Below, piece by piece: positions 3,100 through 25,878 of a DNA stretch of 64,000 nt. Under the pieces are notes generated by a model that made no database searches, was not told the origin of the DNA, and saw nothing but the letters and a program-made list of their open reading frames with translations. Source of the DNA: Acidobacteriaceae bacterium (GTDB taxonomy: Bacteria; Acidobacteriota; Terriglobia; Terriglobales; Acidobacteriaceae); NCBI GenBank assembly GCA_003134995.1, contig PLDC01000019.1, positions 211,920-275,919 of the forward strand, given 5' to 3'. Each line of letters starts with the position of its first letter. Positions within the stretch are counted from its first letter, which is position 1. The position numbers and the translations under genes were made by a program.

Positions 3100-3152
3100 A
3101 TCGCTCCACCTTCACTGCTCCACTCTTGCTGTTCGACTCTTACTGCTCCACC
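3100..3152 (-). repeat. Heptamer array at the czcB stop codon
   Basis: Read on the minus strand, this junction is a degenerate 7-nt tandem array (GGAGCAG, TAAGAGT, CGAACAG, CAAGAGT, GGAGCAG, TGAAGGT, GGAGCG), with the TAA stop codon of czcB opening the second unit. It fills the gap between czcB and czcA. Confidence 0.7.
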
Positions 3153-4282
3153 GTGTTCTGCAGCGCCAGCGCATTTGAAACCACTTGGTCGCCGGGTTTG
3201 ATGCCGGAAACCACCTCTTGCATGTTGTCTGGGAGCATGTTGCCTGTCTTAACCTCAAGACGCTTGAAATGCCCAGCGCTTATCGGCGAGTAAACCCACT
3301 CACGATCGTGCAAGTGCAGAATGGCCGCGGCCGGAACGACGGCCCGCGTCTCCGGCTGCTTCCCATAAAACGTTGCGGTCACGAACATGCCCACGCGCAT
3401 CAGTCCAGGATTCGCGACCTCGAGCCGAACCTTAGCGGTGTGAAGGGTGGGATCGAGAACCGAGAGGATGTTATCGACGCGCCCCCTGAAAGTCTGATTG
3501 GGATAGGCGTTCAGATGAATATCGGCAAACTCGCCGACGTGCACAGCGTCGAGATCGTTTTCGTAAACATCGCAGACGATCCAGACATAGGAAAGATCGG
3601 AGATGGTAAAGGGATTGGGCGAGCCCAGCCCCTGAATGCCCGATGAGTTCGTCACTTGCTGGTCGGTGATGACGCCCGATATTGGAGCGAGGATATCGAC
3701 GATGCCCGAAGGATGATCCTTGTCGACGCCGAGCGTGCGCAACTGTTCAGTGGCATGCTCCAGATCGACCTCGGCATCCTGTGCGGCAGATTCCGCTTGT
3801 TCGAGAGCGCTCTTGGCGACCGCACCTTTGTCGTAGAGAATCTGCGCCCGTTGCAGTTGCACACGAGCCAAGCGCTCATCGTTCTCGGCCTTCAAATACG
3901 TCTGGTACGCGCCGGAGACATCGTTGCTGCGCACTCTGAGCAACAGCTGTCCCTTGGTTACGGTATCGCCCAGCCGCGCTTTGATTTCTACAACTCGTCC
4001 GGCGGCGAGTGAGATCACTGGCACCGCGCGATTAATGTCGGGCTGCACCACGCCTGTGACGTTGAGTGCGGGCGCCGCTTTATGCTCGGTCGCCGTCACC
4101 AGCGGAAACTGATCGGGATGATCCACTTTGAAATTGTTGGCGTCGAGGTCAGGAACCACGGTAGCCGCGGGTGGCGCCTCGGCCTTGGGGTCGGGCTTTG
4201 CTTCATTGCAGCCGGTCAGAAAAGAAGCGAGAGCCAGACACACTGCAGCCCCGGCCAGGAATTTGAAGCATATGTGTTTCAT
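3140..4282 (-). CDS. czcB: Efflux RND periplasmic adaptor (membrane fusion protein), lipoprotein
   Basis: This 380-residue adaptor links the inner-membrane pump to the outer-membrane channel. The N-terminus is a lipoprotein signal with lipobox LTGC, so Cys25 should be lipidated. A biotinyl-lipoyl-like half (VVEIKARLGDTVTKGQLLLRV, about residues 90-110, then ILAPISGVITD) brackets an alpha-helical hairpin of about residues 120-190. Beta-barrel and membrane-proximal domains follow. Its ATG overlaps the czcC stop (ATGA at 4279-4282), which indicates translational coupling. It lacks an obvious His-rich metal-binding N-terminal extension. The family is clear; the metal is not. Confidence 0.92.
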   Translation of the reverse strand: MKHICFKFLAGAAVCLALASFLTGCNEAKPDPKAEAPPAATVVPDLDANNFKVDHPDQFPLVTATEHKAAPALNVTGVVQPDINRAVPVISLAAGRVVEIKARLGDTVTKGQLLLRVRSNDVSGAYQTYLKAENDERLARVQLQRAQILYDKGAVAKSALEQAESAAQDAEVDLEHATEQLRTLGVDKDHPSGIVDILAPISGVITDQQVTNSSGIQGLGSPNPFTISDLSYVWIVCDVYENDLDAVHVGEFADIHLNAYPNQTFRGRVDNILSVLDPTLHTAKVRLEVANPGLMRVGMFVTATFYGKQPETRAVVPAAAILHLHDREWVYSPISAGHFKRLEVKTGNMLPDNMQEVVSGIKPGDQVVSNALALQNTVEQ

Positions 4283-5595
4283 TGAATAACCTCGCGCCCC
4301 ACGGCCTGATTCAGTTGCGCCGCCGAGGTCAGGTACGAGCCGACCAGGTTCACATAGCTGAGTTCCACGGCGCGGTAGTCGTTCTCCGCATTGATGAAAT
4401 CGAGCAGGGAGGCTCCGCCGTGCTGATAAGAAAATAAAATCGTCTCGCGCACACGCACCGCTTGCGCCAGATATTTCTGCTTGTAAGGCCGCAGCAGAGT
4501 CAGGTTGCTGTTCAATGTGGCGTATGCCGAATCTACATCGTTGAAGACCTGCGCCTCCGCTGCATCTTTCAGTCTTTCTTGGCGTGTGATGTCGAGCTTG
4601 GTGCGCAGCTTCTCGCCCTGGTTGCGGTCGAAGATGCGCAGCGGAAAGCTCACGTCGAAGCCGAAGTAGAAATCAATCGGCGGATTCCGGCCCACGTCGA
4701 AGCTGAACGTCGGATCCGTCGATCCATTAGCAACCGCCAGCTTGTAATCGGTCTGCGCCTTGTCTACGGACTGAATCGCCGCCTTCAAGTCAGGTCGATT
4801 ATCCAGCGCAGTCAGCCGGTAAGATTCCAGCGACTCGATCTGATCGTTGAAGTCGAAGACTCCCACAAGATCAAACTGCTCGATCGGAGTGCGATCATTC
4901 AGCAGCATGAGCATTTGAATTTTTGCCGTGCGCAAATTTACTTCCGCCGTCTGCACATCGGACTCGTATTGCACGCGCTGCAACTCCAGTCGATCGAGAT
5001 CGATCTGCGCAATGTCGCCCGCCTCAAAGCGGTCGCGGCTGATCTTCAGCACGTGGTCGTAATATTCGAGATTGTCCAGTGAGACCTTTAGCACGGCCTT
5101 GGCCTGCAGCGTCTGCACGAACGCGCTGCGCAGGTTGAACAGAAGTCCGCGCTCCAAGTCTTTCTGCTGCGAGCGACCCACTGCCGTCCCCTTCTGCGCG
5201 CTTTCGGTTCGAAGCTCGCGCTTGTGCGCGCGCTCGTGCAAGTAGCTCACCGTGGCCGAGGGCAACAAATAAGCGAACACCCCGTGCGGCTCTCCACTGG
5301 TAAAAGGAGCGATCTGGTCGGTGAGCAACGCCAGATTTGGATTCGGCCGCAGATGCGCCGTAATTTCCTGCGCCTGCAATTCGCTGATATTCAATTCGCC
5401 GGCCAGAATCGTGGGATTATTCAGCTCCAGGCGATCCTTCACCTGCTCCCAAGTCCAGGTCTGCGGCGGGGTCGGAGCTGGCGCGAACTGAAGTGGCGGA
5501 GACTGGGCCGGCGGCTGCGCAGTCGGAATCTGCGCCGAAACCGCTCCCGTGCCCAGCGCCAGCAGCAGCAATGGCAACCACAATCTTCGTCGCAT
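4279..5595 (-). CDS. czcC: TolC/CzcC family outer-membrane efflux channel
   Basis: This is the outer-membrane factor of the metal efflux complex. The chosen start gives MRRRLWLPLLLLALGTGA as a signal peptide and follows a GGAG six bases upstream. An ATG at 5607 with AGGAG four bases upstream is almost as good, and the frame stays open to 5676. The mature protein has the two OEP repeats of about 180 residues, with long coiled-coil helices (for example DRFEAGDIAQIDLDRLEL and LFSYQHGGASLLDFINAEND). The latter is the conserved gate-region pattern of the family. It is followed by czcB with a 4-base overlap. The start is uncertain by 4 to 27 residues. Confidence 0.9.
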   Translation of the reverse strand: MRRRLWLPLLLLALGTGAVSAQIPTAQPPAQSPPLQFAPAPTPPQTWTWEQVKDRLELNNPTILAGELNISELQAQEITAHLRPNPNLALLTDQIAPFTSGEPHGVFAYLLPSATVSYLHERAHKRELRTESAQKGTAVGRSQQKDLERGLLFNLRSAFVQTLQAKAVLKVSLDNLEYYDHVLKISRDRFEAGDIAQIDLDRLELQRVQYESDVQTAEVNLRTAKIQMLMLLNDRTPIEQFDLVGVFDFNDQIESLESYRLTALDNRPDLKAAIQSVDKAQTDYKLAVANGSTDPTFSFDVGRNPPIDFYFGFDVSFPLRIFDRNQGEKLRTKLDITRQERLKDAAEAQVFNDVDSAYATLNSNLTLLRPYKQKYLAQAVRVRETILFSYQHGGASLLDFINAENDYRAVELSYVNLVGSYLTSAAQLNQAVGREVIQ

Positions 5596-5851
5596 CAAAT
5601 GCTCCATCCAACTCCTGGGGACTTCCGAACTTGCTCCAACTTCATTCCAAAGTTCTCTCGGGTCTTCTCTTTGCACTGTAGTAGACGCAGCCCGCTAAGT
5701 TGTGCGCCCACCATCGCCGCGCGAACAGCCGTTCCCTAGTATGGGGTTTCCCTCGTAAAGATTCTCTAAAGACGAGGGACAATCGCCGCGGATTTATTGC
5801 TGCAACCCATCAGCGATGCGCCAACAACGCGTACTAAGGATGTTCGGCGAA

Positions 5852-6271
5852 TTAGCCGATGAGGAGCAAAGGAGGTGCGCGGCCGGTGTGGAGAACACAA
5901 GGCCGGACCAGCGGCGTTACCCGTATAACGGAAACTTCCAGCAGCGCGACTTCCGGGGTGAACAACCGCGCCGCACCTACCACAACCGCCGGAGGCCATC
6001 GCAGGCGGTTGATCCAGGCTGAACTTTTTTCGCTTGCGGCCTGGCGCACAGTGCGCTTGCTGACGGAGGAGTCCTCCATCTCGGCGCGCATCGCATGCAG
6101 ATCGTCCGAAGCCGAGATTACTGGAAAGAGTAGAACCAGCGCGCACCCGAGGGCCAGCAGGCATTGCAAAGAACTCACCCTGCGTGCCATCCGCGTTCCC
6201 GCGTCCCGCTGCCACAGCCAATAAGCCGGCAGCGCCAGCAGCAGCCACGCAAGATTGAGCAGCAATTCCAT
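5852..6271 (-). CDS. Small membrane-anchored protein of the efflux operon, unknown function
   Basis: This 139-residue protein has no family I can name. It begins with MELLLNLAWLLLALPAYWLW, one membrane segment, and has a second hydrophobic segment around residues 36-54 (LQCLLALGCALVLLFPVISA). A Met- and acid-rich stretch follows (DDLHAMRAEMED) and then a Pro-rich tail. It lies upstream of czcC on the same strand, 256 bp away, so it probably belongs to the same transcription unit. The Met/Asp/Glu/His-rich loop could bind metal, which is only a guess. A weak TAGAG precedes the ATG. A longer overlapping frame (5766-6386) lacks these features. Confidence 0.65.
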   Translation of the reverse strand: MELLLNLAWLLLALPAYWLWQRDAGTRMARRVSSLQCLLALGCALVLLFPVISASDDLHAMRAEMEDSSVSKRTVRQAASEKSSAWINRLRWPPAVVVGAARLFTPEVALLEVSVIRVTPLVRPCVLHTGRAPPLLLIG

Positions 6272-6429
6272 CTCTAGTTTGTGGTTCCCAGTTTTCCGAC
6301 TTTACCGAAAACGTCCGCGAAAGGCGCAGAAGCGCCAGACACAAATGCGTAGAAATAGTCTTGCAGAAACCCAAGACGCAAGTCAACGTGACCAGCGTAC
6401 CTTGAGGAAATTTGAAGCGGCGCGTCTGG

Positions 6430-6463
6430 ACCCTAGCCCCTGATCCCTGACCCCTGCCCCTAA
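6430..6463 (-). repeat. Heptamer array (AGGGGTC-type) at the stop codon of the 236-residue protein
   Basis: On the minus strand the TAG stop of the neighbouring gene is part of a run of 7-nt units of the type AGGGGTC, AGGGATC, AGGGGCT. The same word family recurs at 9806-9850, 9961-10005 and 25843-25877. Confidence 0.7.
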
Positions 6464-7170
6464 GGCCCCACCACCACCTGCAGCGCCGCCGGAGTTTTCA
6501 ACTCCTCTTTGTAGATCGCGTTGTGCTTGGCGATTTCGCCATTCACATCCACGTAGACCATGTAATCGCCGTGCGGCAACGTCTCGCCGAAAGGCAGCAC
6601 CATTCCCGTCGTGCCCCTCTTCAACGGAAAGTGCTGATAGCCGATTTCCGTGGCCCGTCCGTTTTCGTTGACCGCCTTCACTTCGAACGTCAAATCAACA
6701 ACGTCCGTCGTGGCATTTTTCACCTCCACGCTGCCATCGATCCGGTTATCCGTCACGTGCGCCGGAACCTTCCATGTCACCGTGATGCCGTCCACTACTT
6801 TGATGCTGAATCCCTTGTGCACGGCCTGCCGGGGCTGGCCGCCATCCCGTACCACGATCACAAACTGAAACTCGCCGGCGCGCTCGGCCTCGCCGTGAAG
6901 CAGGCCGTCGTCTTCCAGTTTGATCCCCGGAGGCAGCGCGCCGCCCTCGATACGCCAGTGCAGCGTCGGTACATAATTGCCATGGGCCTGAAAATTCACC
7001 TGATAGGTTCCGTGTGGGTACGTCCCCGGCAGCTCTGTCGGCTCAATGACCAGTCCTGTGTCTTTATCTTGAGCAGCAGCCGCCCCCAAAGCGACCGTCA
7101 GCGCGAGCGCCATTACGGCGAAAGAAGCGATGAAATATACGGCCCGGCGGAATCTCAGTCCCCACTTCAT
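6460..7170 (-). CDS. Secreted protein with a putative Ig (He_PIG-like) domain
   Basis: This 236-residue exported protein has a signal peptide (about residues 1-33, ending GAAAAQD). Residues about 38-125 match the putative-Ig pattern: LHWRIEGGALPPGIKLEDDG, then LLHGEAERAGEFQFVIVVRDG. A second beta-rich half (about 130-230) looks like a second immunoglobulin-type fold (TDVVDLTFEVKAVNENGR). Such domains usually mediate adhesion or protein contacts at the cell surface; the role here is unknown. It is a single gene, divergent from the lipoprotein gene at 7503. Its stop codon lies in a heptamer array. Confidence 0.75.
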   Translation of the reverse strand: MKWGLRFRRAVYFIASFAVMALALTVALGAAAAQDKDTGLVIEPTELPGTYPHGTYQVNFQAHGNYVPTLHWRIEGGALPPGIKLEDDGLLHGEAERAGEFQFVIVVRDGGQPRQAVHKGFSIKVVDGITVTWKVPAHVTDNRIDGSVEVKNATTDVVDLTFEVKAVNENGRATEIGYQHFPLKRGTTGMVLPFGETLPHGDYMVYVDVNGEIAKHNAIYKEELKTPAALQVVVGP

Positions 7171-7502
7171 CTTGAATCCTTCAACTATGCTTCAAAACTT
7201 CACTGAAGAGTGTTCACAAATGCTCACAGAACCATGCTAACCGAATTCTGTTCGGCATCCCACAACTCCGGCGATCCGTTGGTCACCTGATTGTGCCAAG
7301 TTGGATACAGGCTCGGGAACAGGAGATCACACTCCTCCCAAGGACAGAATGTAAAGATATGTATAAGTTGCGCACCCCGAAAGTTTTCTTTTTGGGACGC
7401 GCTACTTATTCCCTTGGTTCGGGTTCTCTGCAAAAGAATTCACCTGTGCTAACCTCAAACTCAAAGGTGACCAGCTTCACGATTCGCTCCCCGGAGGCAG
7501 TT
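7171..7502. other. Divergent intergenic region
   Basis: These 332 bp separate two divergently transcribed secreted-protein genes and must hold both promoters. AT-rich stretches occur around 7350-7370, but no convincing -35/-10 pair was found. The only firm element is the GGAGG ribosome binding site at 7493-7497, just before the 7503 start. No gene is supported here; the small frames overlap with poor codon patterns. Confidence 0.4.
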
Positions 7503-9155: not shown

Positions 9156-9177
9156 GAAAATCATCACAGCAAACAAT

Positions 9178-9212
9178 CGGGCGCGGCTACTCAGCCGCGC
9201 CCGTTCTTTTTC
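9178..9212 (+). terminator. Rho-independent terminator
   Basis: A perfect 11-bp stem (CGGGCGCGGCT / AGCCGCGCCCG) with loop ACTC is followed by TTCTTTTT. It lies 22 bp after the lipoprotein gene stop codon. Confidence 0.9.
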
Positions 9213-9320: not shown

Positions 9321-9803
9321 GTGCTTCACCGACATTTTCTGCGCGTTTCCATATTCTTGCTGACCTTGTTCGTGCTCGGCGGCTCCCTGGCGTCGGCGCG
9401 CGATCTTGCGCTGGTTTCCAACAAATCCAATCCGGTGGGTGCTATCACTCTTCCGGACCTGGTGAAGATTTGCAAAGCGCAAACCAACCGCTGGCCCGAT
9501 GGCAAGCCCGTCACCTTCGTGATGCGCTCTCCGTCGGTGCCCGCGATGAAGGTGGTGCTGGAAAAGGTTTATGGCATGTCTGAGAGCGAGGTCGACGATC
9601 TCATCGTCACCTCAAATCGCGGACGTCCCACGCATCCCGCCATCCTGGTCGCCACCTCCGACGACGAACTCGTCAACAAGGTCGCCACAGTTCCCGGAGC
9701 CATCGGCGTCGTAGATGTGTATTCGATCAACAGCAGCGTGGCCGTGGTCAAGGTCGCAGGCAAGCTCCCGCTGGAACCGGGCTATTTGCTGCATGGAAAC
9801 TAG
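9321..9803 (+). CDS. PstS-like periplasmic substrate-binding protein, short form
   Basis: This 160-residue exported protein starts at GTG with GGAG eight bases upstream and has a signal peptide ending near LASA (residue 25). The mature part (DLALVSNKSNPVGAITLPDL, then a region resembling the GATE-type helix of phosphate-binding proteins, and ending GAIGVVDVYSINSSVAVVKV) matches short PBP-like proteins related to phosphate-binding PstS. It is about half the length of a full PstS and lies without pstCAB neighbours. A role in phosphate uptake is therefore doubtful; it may be a sensor or solitary binding protein. Confidence 0.7.
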   Translation: MLHRHFLRVSIFLLTLFVLGGSLASARDLALVSNKSNPVGAITLPDLVKICKAQTNRWPDGKPVTFVMRSPSVPAMKVVLEKVYGMSESEVDDLIVTSNRGRPTHPAILVATSDDELVNKVATVPGAIGVVDVYSINSSVAVVKVAGKLPLEPGYLLHGN

Positions 9804-10007
9804 AGTCAGGGGTCAGGGGTTAGGGGCTAGGGGTTTGGGGTCAGGGGTCAATAAGAACAACTTTTGGGATCTTGAATTGAGGCGGAATCTCGGGCGTAGA
9901 TCAGGGATCACTGAAGGGTCGGAGATAACGCCAAGGATTAAGAGCGGCCGCACTGCTGCCTAATCCCTAACCCCTGGGTTTCCCTAGCCCCTAGCCCCTG
10001 GCTTTCA
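9804..10007. repeat. Inverted pair of heptamer arrays between two genes
   Basis: Immediately after the TAG stop of the PstS-like gene comes a 7-nt array (GGTCAGG, GGTTAGG, GGCTAGG, GGTTTGG, GGTCAGG). About 110 bp later the inverted counterpart (CCCTAAC, CCCTGGG, CCCCTAG, CCCCTGG) ends just before the start of the PilZ gene. The two arms could fold into a long imperfect hairpin. No gene is visible between them. Confidence 0.75.
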
Positions 10008-10010
10008 AAA

Positions 10011-11452: not shown

Positions 11453-11875
11453 ATGGAACGCAAGGCAAGCGCAGTGTGGAAGGGCGGTTTGAAGGACGGA
11501 AAGGGAACGATTTCGGCACCCGGCGGCGTCTTGAAAGAAACTCAGTATTCGTTTACCTCACGGTTTGAGAACGGGCCGGGAACGAATCCGGAGGAGTTGA
11601 TTGCGGCAGCGCACGCGGCCTGCTTCTCGATGGCGCTTTCGGCGCAACTGGGCGGCGCGAATCTGACTCCTGAGAGCATCAGCACGAACGTGACCCTCAC
11701 CATGGAGAAGCTCGATTCAGGCTGGACGATTACAGCGAGCCATATTGATGTAGTAGGGAAAGTTCCGGGAGCCGATGCGGCCGCATTTCAGAAATATGCG
11801 GAGGCGGCAGAAAAGGGCTGTCCGGTATCGAAAGTGCTGAATGCGAAGATCTCGATGACCGCGAAGCTGGGGTAG
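11453..11875 (+). CDS. osmC: OsmC family peroxiredoxin
   Basis: This 140-residue OsmC/Ohr family protein reduces organic hydroperoxides through a reactive cysteine pair. The N-terminus MERKASAVWKGGLKDGKGTI is typical of OsmC. The peroxidatic Cys lies in HAACFSMALS (about residue 56) and the resolving Cys in KGCPVSKVLN (about residue 124). The start follows AAGGAG with a 5-base spacer. It acts in the cytoplasm against peroxide or osmotic stress. Its TAG stop is followed at once by a heptamer array, then by the tRNA-Leu promoter. Confidence 0.92.
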   Translation: MERKASAVWKGGLKDGKGTISAPGGVLKETQYSFTSRFENGPGTNPEELIAAAHAACFSMALSAQLGGANLTPESISTNVTLTMEKLDSGWTITASHIDVVGKVPGADAAAFQKYAEAAEKGCPVSKVLNAKISMTAKLG

Positions 11876-11910
11876 GGCTTTCGGGCTTCGGCTTTCGGGC
11901 TTCGGCTTTC
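11876..11910 (+). repeat. Heptamer array after the osmC stop codon
   Basis: Five alternating 7-nt units (GGCTTTC, GGGCTTC, GGCTTTC, GGGCTTC, GGCTTTC) begin directly after the TAG stop of osmC. Confidence 0.8.
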
Positions 11911-11932
11911 GCGCTGCAACGGCGTTGTTGGT

Positions 11933-16036: not shown

Positions 16037-16093
16037 ATCTTTGAGAAATTGATTATTGAGTCAATTCCAAATCATTTAATAACTCAATCATTT

Positions 16094-16882
16094 ATGCCTT
16101 TATCTTTCTACAAGAAACCCGCACTCGTGGTTTATGTGACCTGCGGCGATCCGGATCTCGCGACAACGCGTGCCGTGGTGCTGGCCGCGATTGAGGCCGG
16201 TGCTGATGTGATTGAGTTGGGAGTACCATTCAGCGATCCGGTGGCGGATGGGCCTGTGATTCAGCGGGCCAGCGAGCGGGCACTGAAACATGGGACCAGC
16301 CTGGCGCAGGTGTTGACGCTGGCGGCAGAAGTGCGGCAGCATGCGCAATCGACGGGCTTGATTGTGTTTTCGTATTTGAATCCGATCTTGCGCATGAGCA
16401 TGGAGAAGTTTTGCAGGGTGGCACGTCATGCAGGAGTGGATGGCGTGCTGGTCACGGATTTGCCGGTGGAAGAAGCGGGCGAATACTTGCGCGCGATGAA
16501 GGAGAATAATTTGGCGCCGGTTTTTCTGGCGGCGCCGACCAGTCCAGATGCGCGCTTGAAGCGGATTGCTGCAGCGTCTCGCGGATTTATATATGCAGTT
16601 TCGCGCACAGGAGTGACAGGAGCGCGGCAAAAGTTGGCAGAGGATGCGCAGAAATTAGTAAAGCGGTTGCGGCGCGTGACCAAGCTCCCGATCGCGCTCG
16701 GGTTTGGAATTTCGAATGCGGAGCAGTTTGCCGAAGTCGGCAAATTTGCGGACGCGGTGGTAGTGGGCAGTGCGATTGTGGAAACGATTGAGAAGAATCG
16801 AGGATGCGAAGCGGCAGCTGTCGGCGAATTTGTGAGGGAGCTATTAGCTGTCAGCTCTCAGCCGTCAGCTAAAACCTTATAA
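16094..16882 (+). CDS. trpA: Tryptophan synthase alpha chain
   Basis: TrpA cleaves indole-3-glycerol phosphate and channels indole to TrpB. It has 262 residues. Catalytic Glu is in VIELGVPFSDP and catalytic Asp in DPVADGPVIQ. VTDLPVEEA, YAVSRTGVTG and GFGISNAEQ form the rest of the barrel, and VVVGSAIVE the phosphate site. The start MPLSFYKKPALVVY matches the family; a 45-nt upstream extension is open but not family-like. Its last dozen codons (LLAVSSQPSAKTL) are made of a heptamer array, so the tail is probably repeat-derived. Confidence 0.96.
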   Translation: MPLSFYKKPALVVYVTCGDPDLATTRAVVLAAIEAGADVIELGVPFSDPVADGPVIQRASERALKHGTSLAQVLTLAAEVRQHAQSTGLIVFSYLNPILRMSMEKFCRVARHAGVDGVLVTDLPVEEAGEYLRAMKENNLAPVFLAAPTSPDARLKRIAAASRGFIYAVSRTGVTGARQKLAEDAQKLVKRLRRVTKLPIALGFGISNAEQFAEVGKFADAVVVGSAIVETIEKNRGCEAAAVGEFVRELLAVSSQPSAKTL

Positions 16883-16980
16883 TCGGCACGGCCGCCTTTT
16901 CTCTGCGTGGCGATTAACGAAACTTCACACCGAGCACTGTTCGACTTTGCTGATTGCTGACGGCTGAAAGCTGAGAGCGG
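16839..16980. repeat. Inverted heptamer arrays across the trpA-aroQ junction
   Basis: The left arm (AGCTATT, AGCTGTC, AGCTCTC, AGCCGTC, AGCTAAA; 16839-16873) overlaps the end of trpA. The right arm (TTTGCTG, ATTGCTG, ACGGCTG, AAAGCTG, AGAGCGG; 16946-16980) ends 5 bp before the aroQ ATG. The arms are inverted copies of one word type. A TATAAT (16878-16883) overlaps the trpA stop and might act as a -10 box for aroQ. Confidence 0.75.
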
Positions 16981-17308: not shown

Positions 17309-17357
17309 GCAGCTATCAGCTATCAGCTATCAGCAAAAGACTGACAGCTGACAGCCA
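17309..17357. repeat. Heptamer array between aroQ and aroF
   Basis: Seven consecutive 7-nt units (GGCAGCT, ATCAGCT, ATCAGCT, ATCAGCA, AAAGACT, GACAGCT, GACAGCC) occupy the gap. The first and last units are inverted relative to each other. It begins 3 bp after the aroQ stop and ends 11 bp before the aroF start. Confidence 0.8.
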
Positions 17358-17368
17358 AGGTTTTTCCT

Positions 17369-18388
17369 ATGATTGTCGCCATGCAAGACGTAGCGGACGA
17401 GGGCCAGATTCAGCAGGTGATTGAGCACCTGGTGAAAATGGGATTCGAAGTGCACCGGTCAACCGGAGCGCGGCAAACTGTGCTGGGCGCGGTAGGAGCG
17501 GGGATCGACTTCGATATCCGCAACCTTGAGTTGCTGCCGGGAGTGCAGGAAGTCCATCGCATCAGCTCTCCATATAAATTAGCAGGCAAAAGCTTTCGTC
17601 CCGAGGGGACGATCGTAAAACTGGCGAATGGGATCAGCATCGGCGGGAATGAAGTCGTGGTAATGGCTGGACCTTGCTCGGTGGAATCGCGGGAACAGCT
17701 TTTCGCAACGGCGGAAGCGGTGGCGAAGTCTGGAGCGCGCGTGCTGCGCGGGGGAGCGTTCAAGCCGCGAAGTTCCCCGTATTCTTTTCAGGGGCACGGA
17801 GAAGACGCTCTGAAACTGTTGCGCGAGGCTGGAGAGAAATTCAAGTTGCTCGTGATCAGCGAGGTGATGGAGATTTCGCAGATTCCGATGATGTTGCCGT
17901 ACGTGGATATTTTGCAGCTGGGAGCGCGCAACATGCAGAACTTTAACCTGCTGCGCGAACTGGGGAAGGTGCGCAAGCCGGTGCTGGTGAAGCGCGGCAT
18001 CGCTGCGACATTTGAGGAATTGCTTCTCTCGGCGGAATACATCATGGCCGGCGGGAACTATGAAGTAATGTTGTGCGAACGCGGCATCCGCACGTTTGAA
18101 ACGTACACGCGAAACACGATGGACATTTCGGCGATTCCAATTATTCACAAGCTGTCGCATCTGCCGATGACGGCTGATCCGTCGCATGGAACGGGCCGAC
18201 GCGATAAGGTTGCGCCGATGGCGCGCGCGTCCGTGGCGGCAGGAGCGGATGCGCTGCTCATCGAAGTGCATTGCGACCCGAACAAAGCGTGGTCGGATGG
18301 CGCGCAGTCGCTCTTTCCGGAACAGTTCGCGAAACTGATGGATGAGTTGCGGATGATTGCGCCGGCCGTGGGACGAAAGATTGCGTGA
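17369..18388 (+). CDS. aroF: DAHP synthase (type I-beta, KDO8P-like), with N-terminal regulatory domain
   Basis: This 339-residue enzyme catalyses the first step of the shikimate pathway, joining PEP and erythrose-4-phosphate. Residues about 1-70 form the ferredoxin-like regulatory domain of this subfamily (IQQVIEHLVKMGFEVHRSTG). The TIM barrel follows, with VVMAGPCSVESREQ (PEP site), RGGAFKPRSSPYSFQG, LQLGARNMQNF, VLVKRGIAAT and the metal-binding region LPMTADPSHGTGRRD. Linkage to aroQ and tyrA makes sense for Phe/Tyr supply; the regulatory domain suggests feedback control by an aromatic amino acid. The TGA stop opens an octamer array. Confidence 0.95.
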   Translation: MIVAMQDVADEGQIQQVIEHLVKMGFEVHRSTGARQTVLGAVGAGIDFDIRNLELLPGVQEVHRISSPYKLAGKSFRPEGTIVKLANGISIGGNEVVVMAGPCSVESREQLFATAEAVAKSGARVLRGGAFKPRSSPYSFQGHGEDALKLLREAGEKFKLLVISEVMEISQIPMMLPYVDILQLGARNMQNFNLLRELGKVRKPVLVKRGIAATFEELLLSAEYIMAGGNYEVMLCERGIRTFETYTRNTMDISAIPIIHKLSHLPMTADPSHGTGRRDKVAPMARASVAAGADALLIEVHCDPNKAWSDGAQSLFPEQFAKLMDELRMIAPAVGRKIA

Positions 18389-18505
18389 TTGAGTGATCGG
18401 GTCATCGGGCGATTGTGCGATGAGTTTCTAGACCGCTTGGTTTCGAATTTGCGATGCTCTTCGAATCGCCCAATCACAAAATCGCGCGATCGCTTAATTC
18501 TTTTC
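18386..18505. repeat. Inverted octamer arrays between aroF and tyrA
   Basis: The left arm has 8-nt units TGATTGAG, TGATCGGG, TCATCGGG, CGATTGTG, CGATGAGT; the first three bases are the aroF stop codon. The right arm has CGAATCGC, CCAATCAC, AAAATCGC, GCGATCGC and ends about 15 bp before the tyrA start. The arms are inverted versions of one word. Confidence 0.75.
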
Positions 18506-18506
18506 T

Positions 18507-19370: not shown

Positions 19371-19483
19371 ACCCACCACGGAGTCACGGAGCCACGGAGA
19401 AGTGTGATTGGTAATCGGTTGGATGTAAGACTTCCTGTTGTTTTCTCCGTGACTCCGTGACTCCGTGTCTCCGTGGTGGGTTT
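19371..19483. repeat. Large inverted repeat of octamer arrays (CACGGAGT-type)
   Basis: The left arm (19371-19402) is AAACCCACCA followed by CGGAGTCA/CGGAGCCA units. The right arm (19443-19483) is the inverse, with CTCCGTGA units and the end TGGTGGGTTT. The outer 14 bp match exactly and the right arm has one more unit. The loop is about 40 bp. It lies between the tyrA stop and the scoA start and could serve as a bidirectional RNA hairpin. Confidence 0.85.
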
Positions 19484-19503
19484 GGGTTAGAATTGCGAAC
19501 GCG

Positions 19504-20205
19504 ATGAATAAAGTGGTTGCTAATGCGGAGGAGGCGATTCGCGATGTCGGCGACGGCTCGGTCATTATGCTCGGTGGTTTCGGGCTATGCGGGATTCCAG
19601 AAAATCTGATTCGCGCGCTGGCACGCAAGGGATCGAAGAACCTGACGACCATCAGCAATAACGCGGGCATCGATGGATTCGGTGTGGGGTTGCTATTGTC
19701 CGCCGGGCAACTGCGGAAACACATTGGAACCTACGTGGGCGAGAACAAGTTGCTGGAATCGATGGTGCTCACCGGAAAAGTGGAACTGGATCTGGTGCCG
19801 CAGGGGACATTCTCTGAGCGGATTCGCGCTGCTGGCGCGGGAATTCCGGCATTTTTTACTCCTACGGGAGTCGGCACAATTGTGGCGGAAGGAAAAGAGA
19901 CGCGCGAGTTCGATGGCCGTCCTTACGTGATGGAGCGCTGGCTGAAGGCGGACTTCGCTTTCGTCAGAGCGTGGAAGGGCGACCGGATGGGAAACCTTGT
20001 ATACCGGAAGACGGCGCGAAACTTTAATCCCATCATGGCGACGGCGGCGAAAGTGACGATTGCCGAGGTCGAGCAGTTAGTCGACGTAGGCGAACTGGAT
20101 GCGGACTTGGTGCATACGCCTTCCGTTTACGTGAAGCGCATTTTTCAAGGGGAGTCGTACGAGCGGCGGATCGAGAAACGGACGGTGAGGAAATCGAGTA
20201 CCTAG
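19504..20205 (+). CDS. scoA: 3-oxoacid CoA-transferase subunit A
   Basis: This 233-residue alpha subunit of a class I CoA-transferase moves CoA from succinyl-CoA (or acetyl-CoA) to a 3-oxoacid such as acetoacetate. It shows the glycine-rich CoA-binding pattern GGFGLCGIPENLI, SNNAGIDGFGVGLLL and the FTPTGVGTIVAEGKETREFDGR stretch typical of ScoA. The start MNKVVANAEEAI is family-like; the upstream extension runs back into the inverted repeat. It is co-transcribed with scoB 28 bp downstream. Its TAG stop lies in a 7-nt array. Confidence 0.93.
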   Translation: MNKVVANAEEAIRDVGDGSVIMLGGFGLCGIPENLIRALARKGSKNLTTISNNAGIDGFGVGLLLSAGQLRKHIGTYVGENKLLESMVLTGKVELDLVPQGTFSERIRAAGAGIPAFFTPTGVGTIVAEGKETREFDGRPYVMERWLKADFAFVRAWKGDRMGNLVYRKTARNFNPIMATAAKVTIAEVEQLVDVGELDADLVHTPSVYVKRIFQGESYERRIEKRTVRKSST

Positions 20206-20223
20206 TACCTAGTACCTAGAACC
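20196..20223 (+). repeat. Heptamer array at the scoA stop codon
   Basis: Units GAGTACC, TAGTACC, TAGTACC, TAGAACC follow one another, and the first TAG is the scoA stop codon. Because 7 is not a multiple of 3, the repeated TAG falls in successive frames. Confidence 0.8.
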
Positions 20224-20233
20224 AGAATAGATT

Positions 20234-20908: not shown

Positions 20909-20929
20909 TGCGGGGGCTGATACCCTCTC

Positions 20930-20955
20930 TTACGCGGCGCTGAAGCGCCGCTCTT
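20930..20955. repeat. GCGGCGCT/AGCGCCGC palindromic element
   Basis: An 8-bp stem GCGGCGCT/AGCGCCGC with a 2-base loop is flanked by TTAC and TCTTT. Near-identical copies lie at 28131-28157 and 44719-44748. Confidence 0.75.
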
Positions 20956-21024
20956 TCACCGTATCCCAACCACGGTTTCCAACCACGAACTCCCAACAAT
21001 CCGAACTGCCCTCAGCCGATCCGA

Positions 21025-21225
21025 CTAGACCCGAAACGGCGCAGCCAGCAACCGAAACGGCAGCGTGATCGCGAGAAAAATAATCTCCAGCACGCCGTGC
21101 ACCGCGACGCCGACGATGCGAAACGGCAGCAACAATAGCCAAATAAATGGATACGCGACCAGCGCCAGCAGAGCCAGCGGCCAACACATTACGAAGAGTA
21201 TGCACCACAGGAGGAAAGCAAACAC
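21025..21225 (-). CDS. Small two-helix membrane protein, unknown function
   Basis: This 66-residue, almost wholly hydrophobic protein starts at GTG after a strong AAGGAGG with a 7-base spacer. Two membrane segments are visible: about residues 2-33 (FAFLLWCILFVMCWPLALL) and about 36-60 (VGVAVHGVLEIIFLAITLPF). An aromatic-Pro-Arg turn separates them. It resembles small membrane proteins found across Acidobacteriota. It is monocistronic, between scoB (convergent) and the LolC/E gene (same strand). The good ribosome binding site is the main argument that it is real. Confidence 0.65.
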   Translation of the reverse strand: MFAFLLWCILFVMCWPLALLALVAYPFIWLLLLPFRIVGVAVHGVLEIIFLAITLPFRLLAAPFRV

Positions 21226-21292
21226 GATGAGACCTCCTTATCTTTCCTACCTAATTGTACGTGCGCAGCTGAGAAAAAGTTCCCGGAGGAGT

Positions 21293-22666: not shown

Positions 22667-22791
22667 TCTCGCCTTTCAGCCAAATCGGATTATAACGATA
22701 ACGGCGGAAAGACCGCGCATGAGTCGCCGCGCGCTCGTGGTCCCTAAACAAAAAAATCAATCCAAAACCCAAGTCTGTCATCTACGAAACC

Positions 22792-23373
22792 ATGGCAACC
22801 ACAATGCAATTCAGCCTGCCCGAAGCCACAGCAGTTCTCGCTCGCACCCCGGCAACCTTGAATGCACTGCTGCGCGGCCTGCCGAACACTTGGGTGCGCG
22901 GCAACGAAGGAGTCAGCAAAGACGGACACAGTGACCAAGGAAAAGATACGTGGAGCCCGTTCGACATCGTAGGTCACCTGATCGGCGGCGAGCTCACCGA
23001 CTGGATGCCGCGCGCGCGCATCATCCTCGAACACGGCGAAGCCCGCGCATTCGATTCCTTCGACCGCTTTGCGCAGGAAAAAGAGAGTCAAGGCAAATAC
23101 ATCGATCAGCTTCTCGACGAATTCGCCCGCCTGCGCAAAGAAAATCTAGCCGCGCTGCAAGAGCTGAATTTACAGCCCGAAGACTTGGCGCGGCGAGGAA
23201 AGCATCCGGAACTAGGAGTGGTAACTCTATCGGAACTGCTGGCGACATGGGCGGTACACGACCTCACGCACCTGCACCAGCTATCCCGCGTCATGGCCAA
23301 CCAGTATCGCGGCGCAGTCGGCCCCTGGAAAGCGTATCTGGGCGTGCTGCACTGTAACGGCCACGGCGGGTGA
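22792..23373 (+). CDS. DinB-like four-helix metal-binding protein
   Basis: This 193-residue protein belongs to the DinB/YfiT superfamily of putative metal-dependent enzymes, some acting on thiols. The predicted metal-ligand histidines are in DIVGHLIGGE (about residue 63) and AVHDLTHLHQL (about residues 159-165), the usual one plus two arrangement of the fold. The start MATTMQFSLPEATAVLARTP is the family-typical first helix. Its substrate cannot be told from context. It is convergent with the NUDIX gene, with a 28-bp gap. Confidence 0.85.
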   Translation: MATTMQFSLPEATAVLARTPATLNALLRGLPNTWVRGNEGVSKDGHSDQGKDTWSPFDIVGHLIGGELTDWMPRARIILEHGEARAFDSFDRFAQEKESQGKYIDQLLDEFARLRKENLAALQELNLQPEDLARRGKHPELGVVTLSELLATWAVHDLTHLHQLSRVMANQYRGAVGPWKAYLGVLHCNGHGG

Positions 23374-23401
23374 GTAACCTCGCTGAATCAGTTCCTGAGT
23401 G

Positions 23402-23839
23402 TTATTGCTCGGCATTTACTTTCTCGAATCCTTTGCGGATCACATCCATCGTATCCTCCGCCAGCCCTAAGCCCGTCAATTCCTCTCTGCTGAACCACCG
23501 CACTTCCGCTGCATCGCTGGCAGCCGCAATATCCCCCGCAACCCTGCGGCATAGAAAATCAATCAAAACGTAGTGATACTGCACGCGCTGGTCGGCATCG
23601 CGCAAAACCCGGTCGTAGACACCCAGCAGTTCACCGGGTTCAACGGTGAGCCCAGTTTCCTCACGGGCCTCGCGGATGGCTGCCTCGCGCACCAGTTCGC
23701 CAACTTCAAGCACGCCCCCGGGGATGGACCACTCAGCCTGCAGCGGCGGGTGAGCGCGCTTCACCAGCACGACGCGGGAGTCTTCAATGATAATTGCGCC
23801 CACCCCCACCAGCGGCGCTTCAGGGAATTCGCGTTGCAT
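23402..23839 (-). CDS. NUDIX hydrolase
   Basis: This 145-residue pyrophosphohydrolase has a complete Nudix box, GGVLEVGELVREAAIREA followed by REETGL, matching GX5EX7REUXEEXGU. The start MQREFPEAPLVGVGAIII gives the first beta strand. The style (WSIPGGVLEVGE, CRRV...AEVRWFSREEL) is that of MutT-like or ADP-ribose pyrophosphatase-like enzymes acting on nucleotide diphosphate derivatives. The exact substrate is not predictable. It is monocistronic, divergent from the ligD-type module. Confidence 0.92.
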   Translation of the reverse strand: MQREFPEAPLVGVGAIIIEDSRVVLVKRAHPPLQAEWSIPGGVLEVGELVREAAIREAREETGLTVEPGELLGVYDRVLRDADQRVQYHYVLIDFLCRRVAGDIAAASDAAEVRWFSREELTGLGLAEDTMDVIRKGFEKVNAEQ

Positions 23840-23865
23840 AGTGCAAAGATTCTAAAGCATGCTCA

Positions 23866-23925
23866 GTCCAAAGGTTTACCCTGTGATACCCCGTGTTTTC
23901 CGTGTTAAAGATTTTGACTTAGTCC
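23866..23925 (+). repeat. GTTTACCCTGTG-type dispersed repeat, copy 1
   Basis: The sequence AAAGGTTTACCCTGTGATAC, then CCCGTGTTTTCCGTGTT and AAAGATTTT, recurs in diverged form at 29838-29890 and 30024-30076. Its core is a run of CCGTG-type words with 8- to 9-nt spacing. Confidence 0.6.
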
Positions 23926-23947
23926 GTATGGTTAAATAGTTCTCGCC

Positions 23948-24685
23948 ATGGCCCTCGAAGAATACAAGCGGAAACGAAAATTCGAGCAAACCCCCGAGCC
24001 TCCCCCAAAAGTCGAGGCCAAAGCAGGTCACCGCTTCGTAGTCCAGAAGCACGACGCCACACGCCTGCACTACGACTTTCGCCTGGAGATGGAAGGCGTA
24101 CTCAAATCGTGGGCAGTACCCAAGGGACCTTCGCTCGATCCTGCCGACAAACGCCTCGCCATGCAGGTCGAAGATCATCCGGTTTCCTACTTCGATTTCG
24201 AAGGCACCATCCCCGAAGGCAACTACGGAGCCGGCACAGTCATGGTTTGGGACGTTGGCACTTGGCAGCCACTGTCTCCAGTTCCGGTGCAGGGAAAATA
24301 TGTTCCGGGCACTGACGCTGAAGCCGTCGCCATGCTAGCCAAGGGCGATTTGAAATTCCGTCTAAAAGGCAAAAAGCTAAACGGAGACTTCGCACTCATA
24401 AAAATGAAAGGCCGCCGTCCGGGAAGCAAAGGCACGGAATGGCTGCTCATCAAAAAGCACGACGACTACGCTGTCGAAGGCTACGACATCGAAGCTTACG
24501 ACGAATCAGTGCTAAGCAAACGCAGCTTGGCCGAGATCGCCGGGGATTCAGGATCAAAAGAGTGGAAAAGTCGGCCCGCGGGAGGCGGCAAGCTGAAGGC
24601 AGCATGGCTGGCTGATGCTGTGGCGAAACTCGACAAGAAGAAAGCAGCGGAAAGCGGCCAAAAAAAAAAGATCAAAAGCAAGTGA
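23948..24685 (+). CDS. DNA ligase D 3'-phosphoesterase domain protein
   Basis: This 245-residue protein is a stand-alone LigD PE domain, which trims 3' phosphates and ribonucleotides at DNA ends before end joining. Key segments are HRFVVQKHDATRLHYDFRLE (active-site His, Asp and Arg), WAVPKGPSLDP, VEDHPVSYFDFEG, GNYGAGTVMVWDVG and GRRPGSKGTEWLLIKKHD. A basic Lys-rich tail ends the ORF. Its TGA overlaps the GTG start of the following ligase gene (GTGA, 24682-24685). No polymerase domain and no ku gene lie in the window. The pair probably derives from, or functions as, a PE-ligase module. Confidence 0.93.
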   Translation: MALEEYKRKRKFEQTPEPPPKVEAKAGHRFVVQKHDATRLHYDFRLEMEGVLKSWAVPKGPSLDPADKRLAMQVEDHPVSYFDFEGTIPEGNYGAGTVMVWDVGTWQPLSPVPVQGKYVPGTDAEAVAMLAKGDLKFRLKGKKLNGDFALIKMKGRRPGSKGTEWLLIKKHDDYAVEGYDIEAYDESVLSKRSLAEIAGDSGSKEWKSRPAGGGKLKAAWLADAVAKLDKKKAAESGQKKKIKSK

Positions 24686-25845
24686 AAACCGCAGAGGTCG
24701 CGGAGGACGCAGAGGAGAATAATAGAAAAACCTCGTCGGCGCATGTCGCGCCACCTGTATCCCCCCTCCCGACCGTCAAGAAAAAACCAAAATCCTCGGC
24801 GTCCTCAACGTCCTCCGCGGTTTTAATTTCCTCAGGTCCAGTAAAGCGCCCCATGCCCCCGGCGATCCACCCCATGCTAGCCACATCGGTCGACGAGCCC
24901 TTCGACGGCCCCGACTGGCTCTTCGAAATCAAATGGGACGGCTACCGCGCTGTAGCCTTCTTTGAAAACGGCAAACTACGCCTGGTCTCGCGCAATCAGA
25001 ATGAACTTACCCAGCGCTATCCAGAACTCAAAGATCTCCCAAAGTTCGTCCATGCGAAAACCGCGATCCTCGATGGAGAAGTAGTCGCACTCGATGAGCA
25101 AGGCCGAGCATCGTTCAGCCTGATGCAGCAGCGCACCGGATTCCGTCCCGGCGGCCGCCGCGGGGCCACCAATGCCGATGTCCCCGTTCTCTATTACGCA
25201 TTCGATTTGCTCTATCTCGATGGCTACGACTGGCGAAAAGTCCCGCTCGAAGAGCGCAAGAAAAAACTGGCCTCGCTGCTCGACACCGGCGATGCCGTCC
25301 GCTACTCCGATCATTATGAGGAGCAGGGCAAAGCACTCTTCGAAATGGCGCGCGCCAAGGGCCTCGAAGGCATCCTGGCCAAGAGGCGTGACAGCATTTA
25401 TCAGGAGCGCCGCAGCGCCGAATGGCTGAAGATCAAGATCAGGCACCAACTCGAAGCCGTGATCGGCGGCTACACCGAGCCCGAAGGCAGCCGCGCACAT
25501 TTCGGATCGATCGTGTTGGGACTCTATGACAAGCAGGGACGCCTGATCCACGTAGGCCAAGCGGGCAGCGGATTCAACCAGAAGTCGCTAGCAGAAATCT
25601 GGAAGATGCTGAAGAAAAGAGAGACAAAGCAAAATCCGTTCTACGGCGAAGTCGAAGCGCTAAGAAAAGTGTACTGGGTAAAGCCGGAACTAGTTGCCCA
25701 GATCGAATACGCGGAGTGGACCGACGGCGCCAGCAAAGGCAGCGGACCCAAGCTAAGAGCGCCAGTATTCCTAGGCCTGCGCGACGACAAAGATCCAAAG
25801 GACTGCACGCTGGATCAAGAACAAAAACCGAGAACCGAGAACTGA
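24682..25845 (+). CDS. ligD: ATP-dependent DNA ligase (LigD ligase domain)
   Basis: This 387-residue ligase for non-homologous end joining has the nucleotidyl-transferase motif FEIKWDGYRAV (AMP-binding Lys), LDGEVVALDEQGR, YYAFDLLYLDG, EGILAKRRDS and WLKIKIRHQ, then an OB-fold domain (YTEPEGSRAHFGSIVLGLYD). The start is GTG, overlapping the PE stop by four bases. The first about 50 residues are low-complexity (AEVAEDAEENNRKTSS, then SSASSTSSA) and are encoded by an inverted repeat of 9-nt arrays, so they are a repeat-derived linker. The TGA stop lies in a heptamer array. Confidence 0.93.
   Translation: MKTAEVAEDAEENNRKTSSAHVAPPVSPLPTVKKKPKSSASSTSSAVLISSGPVKRPMPPAIHPMLATSVDEPFDGPDWLFEIKWDGYRAVAFFENGKLRLVSRNQNELTQRYPELKDLPKFVHAKTAILDGEVVALDEQGRASFSLMQQRTGFRPGGRRGATNADVPVLYYAFDLLYLDGYDWRKVPLEERKKKLASLLDTGDAVRYSDHYEEQGKALFEMARAKGLEGILAKRRDSIYQERRSAEWLKIKIRHQLEAVIGGYTEPEGSRAHFGSIVLGLYDKQGRLIHVGQAGSGFNQKSLAEIWKMLKKRETKQNPFYGEVEALRKVYWVKPELVAQIEYAEWTDGASKGSGPKLRAPVFLGLRDDKDPKDCTLDQEQKPRTEN
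24683..24835. repeat. Inverted 9-nt arrays translated at the PE-ligase junction
   Basis: The left arm has CGCAGAGGT, CGCGGAGGA, CGCAGAGGA. About 90 bp later the inverse CCTCGGCGT, CCTCAACGT, CCTCCGCGG ends in GTTTTAA. The arms start at the PE stop codon. The 9-nt period keeps frame, and the whole element is read through as the N-terminus of the ligase ORF. Confidence 0.75.
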
Positions 25846-25878
25846 CCCCTGACCCCTGACCCCTGACCCCTGACCCCT
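25822..25878 (+). repeat. Heptamer array at the ligase stop codon
   Basis: Five exact TGACCCC units (25843-25877) begin with the TGA stop codon of the ligase gene. They are preceded by coding units ACCGAGA, ACCGAGA. The minus-strand gene ending at 25880 abuts the other side. Confidence 0.85.

What the first reader, a model, noticed from the sequence alone, without database searches (positions are those of the whole stretch)
3100..25878. Tandem 7-, 8- or 9-nt arrays nucleated at stop codons of at least eleven genes
Short tandem arrays, each made of a different word, start at or within a few bases of the stop codons of czcB, the 236-residue Ig-like gene, the PstS-like gene, osmC, trpA, aroQ, aroF, tyrA, scoA, the LigD PE gene and the LigD ligase gene. 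In several the stop codon is itself part of a unit (TAGTACC, TGACCCC, TGATTGAG). Because 7 and 8 are not multiples of 3, repeating the stop-bearing unit puts stops in every frame. The one 9-nt array (frame-preserving) is the one that is translated. I know heptanucleotide STRR arrays from cyanobacteria, but not this strict stop-codon anchoring.
Basis: partly seen in the sequence, partly recalled or inferred. Interest (0 to 1): 0.8.

Follow-up and report, generated by a model that had tools for sequence, protein, structure and literature searches.

The report
Stop-anchored paired arrays of interchangeable words
Right behind the stop codons of many genes in this bacterium sit short runs of a repeated 7-, 8- or 9-letter DNA word, often answered by the same word reversed just before the next gene; related species fill the same gap with a different word, and one word recurs in many unrelated bacteria, which points to a little-described class of repeat elements.

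Summary
The arrays are real and not chance. On the window's contig (834 kb) 101 intergenic arrays of period 7, 8 or 14 were tested; 50 start within 10 nt of a stop codon against 20.6 +/- 3.6 for random placement in the same gaps. Array-armed palindromes hug the stop in 37 of 43 cases, other palindromes in 10 of 43; with at least 40 nt to spare, 10 of 15 against 6 of 39. At one orthologous junction (aroF-tyrA) 28 of 30 congeners carry such an element, with different words whose labels change at least 9 times on the gene tree. The word CACNGAG recurs, usually multi-copy, in about a dozen phyla. The 'stops in every frame' idea fails. Convergent stop-proximal heptamer arrays are known from Xanthomonas (one word); a many-word, word-swapping version was not found in print here. 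Best reading: short interspersed palindromic elements kept at gene ends, spread by an unidentified mechanism.

The parts
3103..3151 (-). imperfect 14-nt (2x7) array across the czcB stop; unpaired, weak
   Evidence: TRF; G033 has no gap and G035 a 27-nt gap at this junction
6437..6461 (-). CCCTGAC-type heptamer array at the stop of the 236-aa gene (6460-7170 -); no second arm seen
   Evidence: TRF, reading
9805..9850 (+). left arm GTCAGGG(G), 1 nt after the stop of the PstS-like gene (9321-9803)
9961..10003 (-). right (inverted) arm of the same word, about 8 nt before ATG 10011
   Evidence: TRF 9982-9999; paired (C23:221714)
11876..11915 (+). GGCTTTCGGGCTTC array directly after the osmC stop (11873-11875); no clear second arm
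   Evidence: RNA fold z -0.36
16040..16093 (+). weak inverted ATTGA-word pair filling the trpB-trpA gap
   Evidence: reading; RNA fold z -0.18
16825..16876 (+). left arm TCAGCYN heptamers, inside the 3' end of trpA and translated (stop at 16880-16882)
   Evidence: TRF 16846-16870; translation
16947..16978 (-). right arm (RGCTGAN) 7 nt before aroQ ATG 16986
17310..17334 (+). left arm CAGCTAT x3.6, 3 nt after the aroQ stop
17341..17355 (-). right arm CTGACAG x2.1, 13 nt before aroF ATG 17369
18379..18421 (+). left arm GATTGNGT octamers running across the aroF stop (18386-18388)
18465..18499 (-). right arm (CNCAATCG octamers) before tyrA ATG 18507
   Evidence: reading; word count (L048: 5 left, 3 right)
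19376..19399 (+). left arm CACGGAGN octamers, about 6 nt after the tyrA stop
19445..19475 (-). right arm CTCCGTGN octamers
   Evidence: RNA fold of the gap -64 kcal/mol, z -6.4
20197..20223 (+). TAGTACC array that contains the scoA stop (20203-20205) and fills the scoA-scoB gap; unpaired
24690..24716 (+). left arm CGCAGAGGA 9-mers, 4 nt after the LigD PE stop
24793..24820 (-). right arm (TCCTCNGCG 9-mers)
   Evidence: reading; paired; RNA fold z -5.5
25826..25879 (+). AACCGAG array inside the end of the LigD ligase gene running into a CTGACCC array that holds its stop (25843-25845) and fills the gap to a convergent stop at 25880

Best explanation
They are short interspersed palindromic elements whose two arms are tandem arrays of one 7-9-nt word in convergent orientation; single arrays are half or decayed forms. 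Shown: the architecture, the position (left edge about 3 nt after a stop, right edge about 12 nt before the next start), many words per genome, word sharing between loci, genera and phyla, different words in the same orthologous gap, one inversion of the loop between arms. Inferred: copies spread as non-autonomous units through some function that recognises the word (apparently not a Y1/RAYT transposase), land or are kept at the 3' end of genes, change length by slippage, flip their loops by recombination or template switching between arms, and are replaced by other elements, partly through recombination between congeners. In the mRNA they can form an intercistronic hairpin, whose use, if any, is secondary.
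For: Letters just outside the array are also conserved in 95 first-unit matches (C 76% at -1, A 76% at -2, T 58-62% at -4 and -5). Patchy in the phylum: TCAGCYN in 17 of 149 genomes, in none of the 9 genomes of genus g20 of the same family; a 400-kb sample of one of these, G134, has no intergenic array of period 7, 8 or 9. Variable letters of the word are not complementary between arms: 62 elements, match 0.858 in the best register, 0.828 shifted by whole units, 0.844 between units of one arm, so the word rather than full base pairing is kept. The loop of L054 matches the reverse complement of those of L049 and L075 at the same junction (scores 70 and 59, shuffles at most 27 and 22). aroF-tyrA labels: 9 changes on the tree, three starred sister pairs differ.
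Against: No mover identified and no target-site duplication shown. Loops are mostly unrelated, unlike classical MITEs; even at one junction only 4 of 21, 0 of 10 and 4 of 55 species pairs had detectably similar loops. 58 consensus words among 105 arrays of one contig (4 of them coding) look too many for a handful of mobile families, although variants of one degenerate word are counted apart there. Loop similarity within a word type means that swaps may be recombination between old alleles, not fresh insertion. 40 of the 102 cross-phylum matches lie inside an open frame of 80 aa or more by a crude call. Two of the 32 genomes (G220, G240) have only 2 matches, in G220 one single element. In the Abditibacteriaceae genome flanks outside the arms are complementary within a locus (0.47 against 0.34 between loci, 3 of 5000 permutations; L286 contributes much), which points to local templating.
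Confidence: 0.45

Rival explanations
1. In-place origin: a 7-9-nt segment beginning at or just behind the stop codon is duplicated by slippage and expands until coding sequence on one side and the ribosome site on the other stop it; fold-back template switching makes the inverted arm. The coding limit explains the anchoring.
For: Array in register with the stop for 14 of 30 TAG stops; the stop triplet matches the array phase 0.37 and 0.45 against 0.22 and 0.24 in other phases (arrays overlapping the stop contribute by construction); many private words; locus-specific palindromic flanks; in 10 of 18 species with the ATTG octamer the aroF stop is part of the array (read by eye).
Against: The same degenerate word with similar flanks in many phyla; arms are not mirror copies in the window's genus; a genus of the same family with the same G+C has none in 400 kb; sequence upstream of the array does not continue it (0.22, 0.24).
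Confidence: 0.25
2. Functional intercistronic RNA hairpin: selection keeps a stem between stop and ribosome site (3'-end protection, attenuation or translational coupling), whatever its letters.
For: 28 of 30 congeners keep a word-array element at aroF-tyrA, 26 of these 28 with both arms by a strict word count; the element spans from stop to ribosome site; RNA folds of the tyrA-scoA and LigD gaps have z -6.4 and -5.5; T-rich stretches follow the right arm at aroQ-aroF (17359-17363) and before tyrA (about 18500-18506).
Against: No clear excess of G.U over A.C mismatches: 134 vs 119, 64 vs 47, 24 vs 28, 18 vs 24, 20 vs 19 in sense-oriented sets; variable positions do not covary between arms; four of six window gaps fold only weakly or moderately (z -2.1, -1.9, -0.4, -0.2); convergent gene pairs carry them too (18 of 101 arrays); none in the G134 sample.
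Confidence: 0.2
3. REPIN/RAYT system: the arms are REPs moved by Y1 (REP-associated tyrosine) transposases.
For: Inverted doublets, intergenic, hairpin-forming; 8 PF01797 matches in G000.
Against: In the 8 loci arrays of the kind were seen only at L214, 394 nt upstream and 260 nt downstream of the Y1 frame, beside neighbouring genes; six g46 genomes with TCAGCYN arrays (G118, G128, G154, G178, G186, G194) are not among the 100 of 149 listed with PF01797.
Confidence: 0.05
4. No anchoring: arrays sit near stops only because gaps are short.
For: Median array-bearing gap is 133 nt.
Against: 50 observed against 20.6 +/- 3.6 in the same gaps; 10 of 15 versus 6 of 39 where >=40 nt are free; 9 other interspersed palindromes of the same contig: 0 near stops.
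Confidence: 0.03

Closest known systems
GGGAATC / GGGGA(T/C)T heptamer repeats of Xanthomonas and Nostoc (Rehm et al. 2015, PMC4692102; passages seen)
   Same: Heptamer arrays between aligned genes, rare between divergent genes, close to the stop on the sense strand or before the start on the antisense strand; 70 and 75 convergent pairs in two Xanthomonas genomes.
   Different: One G-rich word there, read as a G-quadruplex; here dozens of words of 7, 8 and 9 nt, most not G-rich, left edge about 3 nt from the stop, and word swapping at orthologous gaps.
TAACTGA direct repeats of Beggiatoaceae, cyanobacteria, Bacteroidetes (MacGregor 2015, PMC4679880; abstract, outline and passages seen)
   Same: Intergenic heptamer arrays with patchy distribution over distant phyla, some overlapping stops.
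   Different: Single word, mostly direct repeats upstream of start codons, related words rarely repeated.
REPINs / REPs with RAYTs (PMC3116915 passages; PMC3733652 and PMC2817692 search listings only)
   Same: Short intergenic inverted doublets, non-autonomous.
   Different: Arms are tandem words here; no RAYT association found.
Cyanobacterial STRR heptanucleotides (recalled; only listings)
   Same: Intergenic heptanucleotide arrays.
   Different: No stop anchoring or paired arms known to me.
Inverted DNA uptake sequence pairs at gene ends (listings; details recalled)
   Same: A genome-wide short word in inverted pairs behind genes.
   Different: One copy per arm, one word per species, linked to transcription terminators.

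Membership tests
Xanthomonas-type convergent heptamer repeats | convergent pairs of tandem heptamers in intergenic DNA | tested here: met
   62 elements with both arms as arrays (38 on the contig, 24 from congeneric junctions); octamers and 9-mers as well
Xanthomonas-type convergent heptamer repeats | sense-strand position near the stop, rare between divergent genes | tested here: met
   50 of 101 within 10 nt; arrays in 5 of 103 divergent gaps versus 46 of 226 and 19 of 139 co-directional. In G159 15 of 102 arrays are in divergent gaps, which are 36 of 186 gaps: hardly depleted there
Xanthomonas-type convergent heptamer repeats | G-rich, quadruplex-capable unit | tested here: not met
   by reading the word lists, most words lack a GGG run on either strand; folding as a quadruplex was not tested
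REPIN/RAYT | association with a Y1 (PF01797) transposase gene | tested here: not met
MITE | conserved element with terminal inverted repeats and target-site duplication, mobilised by a known transposase | tested here: inconclusive
   20 Abditibacteriaceae loci read: arms exact mirrors in 15 of 17 paired ones; target duplications not tested
Rho-independent terminator | GC stem followed by a T tract in the direction of transcription | tested here: inconclusive
   three hits at arrays (17356-17339, 19389-19376, 24703-24689) are on the minus strand, against transcription, one (11911-11925, +) touches the osmC array; the scan allows loops of 3-8 only and so cannot judge the long-loop stems; T-rich stretches follow some right arms
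Known structured RNA families (Rfam 15) | covariance-model match at gathering score | tested here: not met
   only one tRNA in the window
Cyanobacterial STRR | the named STRR heptamers | not tested
   no STRR sequences were compared

The most novel reading that the evidence does not exclude
A pan-bacterial class of stop-codon-targeted elements defined by form and position rather than by sequence: convergent arrays of interchangeable 7-9-nt words, installed at gene ends by an undescribed machinery that reads the word, and exchanged at the same gene junction between close relatives.
Probability: 0.32. Interest if true: 0.86.

Novelty: new variant of a known kind. Interest (0 to 1): 0.67.

Why it matters
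Intergenic DNA of bacteria is treated as either regulatory or noise. Here a fixed architecture occupies gene ends while its letters are exchanged, and one of its words is shared by about a dozen phyla. If an installing machinery exists, it would be a new kind of DNA mobility aimed at gene ends; if the arrays form in place, they are a clean natural record of slippage and template switching; if the hairpin is used, there is a widespread post-stop RNA signal. The data make these alternatives testable at single orthologous junctions.

Tried and rejected
Chance: rejected (no array of period 7, 8 or 14 in five Markov replicates). Short gaps alone: rejected. Fail-safe stops in every frame: rejected. 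RAYT/Y1 transposase: not supported. mRNA hairpin by wobble bias: no clear signal (aroF-tyrA leans to G.U, 64 vs 47, two other junctions the other way; convergent set without fixed sense 23 vs 13). Palindrome of mirror copies: no in the window's genus, yes for arms in the Abditibacteriaceae genome (15 of 17). Near-start anchoring: none by the same test (19 observed, 19.6 expected within 15 nt). Third replication genome G186: 4 of 12 near stops, 3.6 expected, no conclusion. In one search one of the 17 genomes (G163) also has many matches to the reversed control, and three genomes without forward matches (G155, G171, G192) have 6, 26 and 34 control matches, so that pattern alone is not proof in a single genome. 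A periodicity filter was useless because the alignment spanned the loop; redone. One search stopped with a script error after its first half; the second half was redone. misread loci lying on the minus strand; redone. In one search the species L056 and L076 were labelled CACNGAG although by reading they carry the related 9-mer (one search counts L076 as 9-mer, L056 still as CACNGAG), and two of the nine label changes concern the two species without an array. Gene models are my own simple caller (640 genes, 79.5% coding), so some genes are missed and starts are uncertain. Rows dropped before the placement test: of 107 intergenic rows, six of period 9 or 10, besides arrays of other periods and those inside called genes. 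L071 was misread for TrpA and not counted as an array tail. Odds changed on re-checking: the terminator test had been called 'not met' and is now inconclusive, so the hairpin rival went from 0.18 to 0.20 and the best explanation from 0.47 to 0.45. Literature: a search for six array strings found four unrelated papers; searches found the works cited and, in their listings, no description of stop-anchored multi-word convergent arrays; the library is open-access only.
Full report
Where it lies. The window is G000:C23:211920-275919 of a 5.62-Mb genome in 29 contigs. It carries a trp-aro operon (trpB, trpA, aroQ, aroF, tyrA, scoA, scoB) and neighbours.

Observation. TRF lists period 7, 8, 9 and 14 arrays at the ends of the named genes, which I read letter by letter. 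At czcB, the 236-aa gene, osmC, scoA and the LigD ligase I saw one array only.

Genome-scale test. I joined the whole contig (833,854 nt, 13 N) from stretches, called 640 genes with a home-made model, and searched imperfect arrays of period 4-15. Intergenic counts: period 7: 68, period 8: 18, period 14: 15; inside genes 3, 1 and 0. Five order-3 Markov replicates of the intergenic DNA gave none at these periods. Of 101 arrays, 50 lie within 10 nt of a stop; placing each at random in its own gap gives 20.6 (sd 3.6, maximum 35 in 2000 trials). Nearness to starts (within 15 nt) is not above random (19 against 19.6). Gaps between divergent genes carry arrays in 5 of 103 cases, co-directional ones in 46 of 226 and 19 of 139, convergent ones in 14 of 93.

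Is this only lack of space? I compared array-armed palindromes with other palindromes in co-directional gaps of the same contig. Left edge within 10 nt of the stop: 37 of 43 against 10 of 43 (Fisher 5e-9). With at least 40 nt free around the element: 10 of 15 against 6 of 39 (5e-4). Nine other interspersed palindromes of the same contig, seven of them of the TGTCATCCCGAGCGAAGCGAGGGATC type, give 0 of 9. Median distances for array elements are 3 nt after the stop and 12 nt before the start. In G159, a second genus of the same family, 41 of 102 arrays are within 10 nt of a stop against 20.9 (sd 3.6); the palindrome comparison there is 22 of 32 against 5 of 15 (p 0.03) and, with space to spare, 5 of 13 against 1 of 10 (not significant). 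G186 (another family) shows no excess, 4 of 12 against 3.6. G134, of a third genus of the same family with similar G+C, has no intergenic array of period 7, 8 or 9 in 400 kb, two of period 14.

Anatomy. 62 elements have both arms as arrays. Arms agree with each other (as reverse complements) hardly better in their best register (0.858) than after a shift by whole units (0.828) or than units within one arm (0.844). So particular letters of the word are kept and others are free, without complementary change in the other arm. Mismatches that would be tolerated as G.U in the mRNA are not clearly more frequent than those that would not (134 against 119 in 50 contig elements; four smaller sets go both ways). 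Both results speak against simple selection for an mRNA stem and against arms being mirror copies. The arms still fold: of six window gaps tested two have RNA z-scores of -6.4 and -5.5, the others -2.1, -1.9, -0.4 and -0.2. A terminator role is not excluded: the scan admits only short loops, and T-rich stretches follow some right arms. Orientation within a word family is constant at aroF-tyrA: words in reversed polarity were counted once each in 2 of 29 species and not in the rest.

Register with the stop. For period-7 near-stop arrays with a YAG triplet, the YAG is in register with the stop in 16 of 50; for TAG stops 14 of 30, TAA 2 of 12, TGA 0 of 8. The stop triplet agrees with the array phase more than with other phases (0.37 against 0.22; 0.45 against 0.24), while the letters upstream of the array do not (0.22, 0.24); arrays overlapping the stop contribute to this by construction. 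TAG stops are slightly enriched near arrays (44 of 87, genome share 331 of 878, p 0.015). In trpA the arm has taken the place of the stop: congeners without the array end ...EFVRKLVG* (L049) or ...AFVRKLCGR* (L067), those with it run on, for example ...KLSAVSSQPSVPVS* (L051); 11 of 28 TrpA ends read show such a tail.

Orthologous junctions. aroF was found in 60 of 61 genomes; the 30 loci given, all of the own genus, were compared at four junctions where covered. At aroF-tyrA, 28 of 30 carry an array element: an ATTG octamer in 18, CACNGAG octamers or the related 9-mer in 10; one has an unrelated GC hairpin (L067), one about 1 kb of other sequence (L068). On the aroF tree the four labels need 9 changes (3 is the least possible; shuffled mean 10.7, as low in 23 of 200), of which well-supported branches force 5 for the ATTG label; three well-supported sister pairs differ (L056/L060, L059/L063, L069/L071). 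A stricter count finds both arms in 26 of the 28. Loops of L049, L054 and L075 are similar, that of L054 in inverted orientation. Loop similarity within a word type was found in 4 of 21, 0 of 10 and 4 of 55 species pairs compared; where it exists, recombination between old alleles can explain a swap. Empty junctions exist: aroQ-aroF is 24 nt in L049 and 9 nt in L067, tyrA-scoA 39 nt in L052.

Spread. TCAGCYN arrays occur in 17 of 149 sampled Acidobacteriota genomes, 11 of 100 genera, patchily; the GTAATTNN octamer in 3 of 149. CACNGAG arrays were found in at least 118 stretches; the 80 loci shown bear titles from Planctomycetota, Acidobacteriota, Pseudomonadota, Nitrospirota, Nitrospinota, Gemmatimonadota, Chloroflexota, Bacteroidota, Verrucomicrobiota, Spirochaetota, Chlamydiota, Abditibacteriota and Geobacter-type records (phyla assigned by me from the titles). 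Most are metagenome bins; two records that look like isolates (Undibacterium, Propionivibrio) have 24 and 17 matches. The 32 genomes searched, of the 80 loci, hold 2 to 1610 matches; in G220 the two matches are one element, and in G228 (50 matches, control 19) the excess over the reversed control is small. Seven of the 32 also hold TCAGCYN. The 32 were chosen because they had a match, so the copy numbers, not the presence, are the result. In 20 loci of one Abditibacteriaceae genome, CACNGAG arms often enclose a second inverted array of another heptamer (GAGGATA type), and flanks outside the arms are complementary within a locus more than between loci.

Mechanism. The shared words, shared flanks, patchy presence and constant polarity are best explained by dispersal of word-defined elements; the many private words, the register with TAG and the palindromic flanks suggest that slippage and template switching also act in place. 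I commit to dispersal plus local reshaping (0.45), with pure in-place origin (0.25) and a selected RNA hairpin (0.20) as rivals. Y1 transposases are an unlikely mover. Nothing here shows a function.

Known or new. Rehm et al. 2015 (PMC4692102, passages seen) describe the closest thing: a single G-rich heptamer in Xanthomonas, near stops on the sense strand, with 70 and 75 convergent pairs. MacGregor 2015 (PMC4679880) describes TAACTGA arrays lying mostly upstream of start codons. The kind is therefore known; the multi-word form, the tight stop edge, the word exchange at orthologous junctions and the octamer shared by many phyla are what I did not find in print (searches; listings, abstracts and passages only).

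Noticed in passing
G000 contig C23, junctions g169, g209 and g317: Another interspersed palindrome (TGTCATCCCGAGCGAAGCGAGGGATCTTGG...) occupies other gaps; none of the 7 co-directional copies lies within 10 nt of a stop.
   Followed up: partly
L111, L124, L138, L150, L170, L173, L175 (one uncultured Gemmatimonadetes genome, G219): 1610 matches of the CACNGAG triple array in a 5.8-Mb genome, an extreme expansion (reversed control 108).
   Followed up: no
L278-L297 (Abditibacteriaceae genome G231): Nested elements: outer CACNGAG arms often enclose a second inverted array of a GAGGATA-type heptamer; at L286 twenty nt outside the arms are perfectly mirrored.
   Followed up: partly
window 16825-16882 and L050-L076: TrpA C-terminal tails (SAVSSQPSA and variants) are encoded by the heptamer array in 11 of 28 congeneric ends read: repeat-made protein tails.
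   Followed up: partly
L068, aroF-tyrA junction: About 1 kb of extra sequence sits in this gap in one congener instead of the array element.
   Followed up: no
window 28057-28144: 2.5 copies of a 34-nt repeat with a GC palindrome (GTGGAAGAGCGGCGCTTCA...) between convergent genes; G035 has one short form.
   Followed up: no
window 52688-52730: Perfect 16-nt tandem repeat GCTCCACCCTCGCTCC x2.7.
   Followed up: no
G000:C29:330593-335768: Three PF01797 (Y1 transposase) matches within 5.2 kb; no word array in their loci L218-L220.
   Followed up: partly
near-stop arms, G000 and G159: Left arms are rich in G and T on the sense strand (390 of 626 letters of 87 consensus words), largely whatever the word; CACNGAG is an exception. 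Unexplained.
   Followed up: partly
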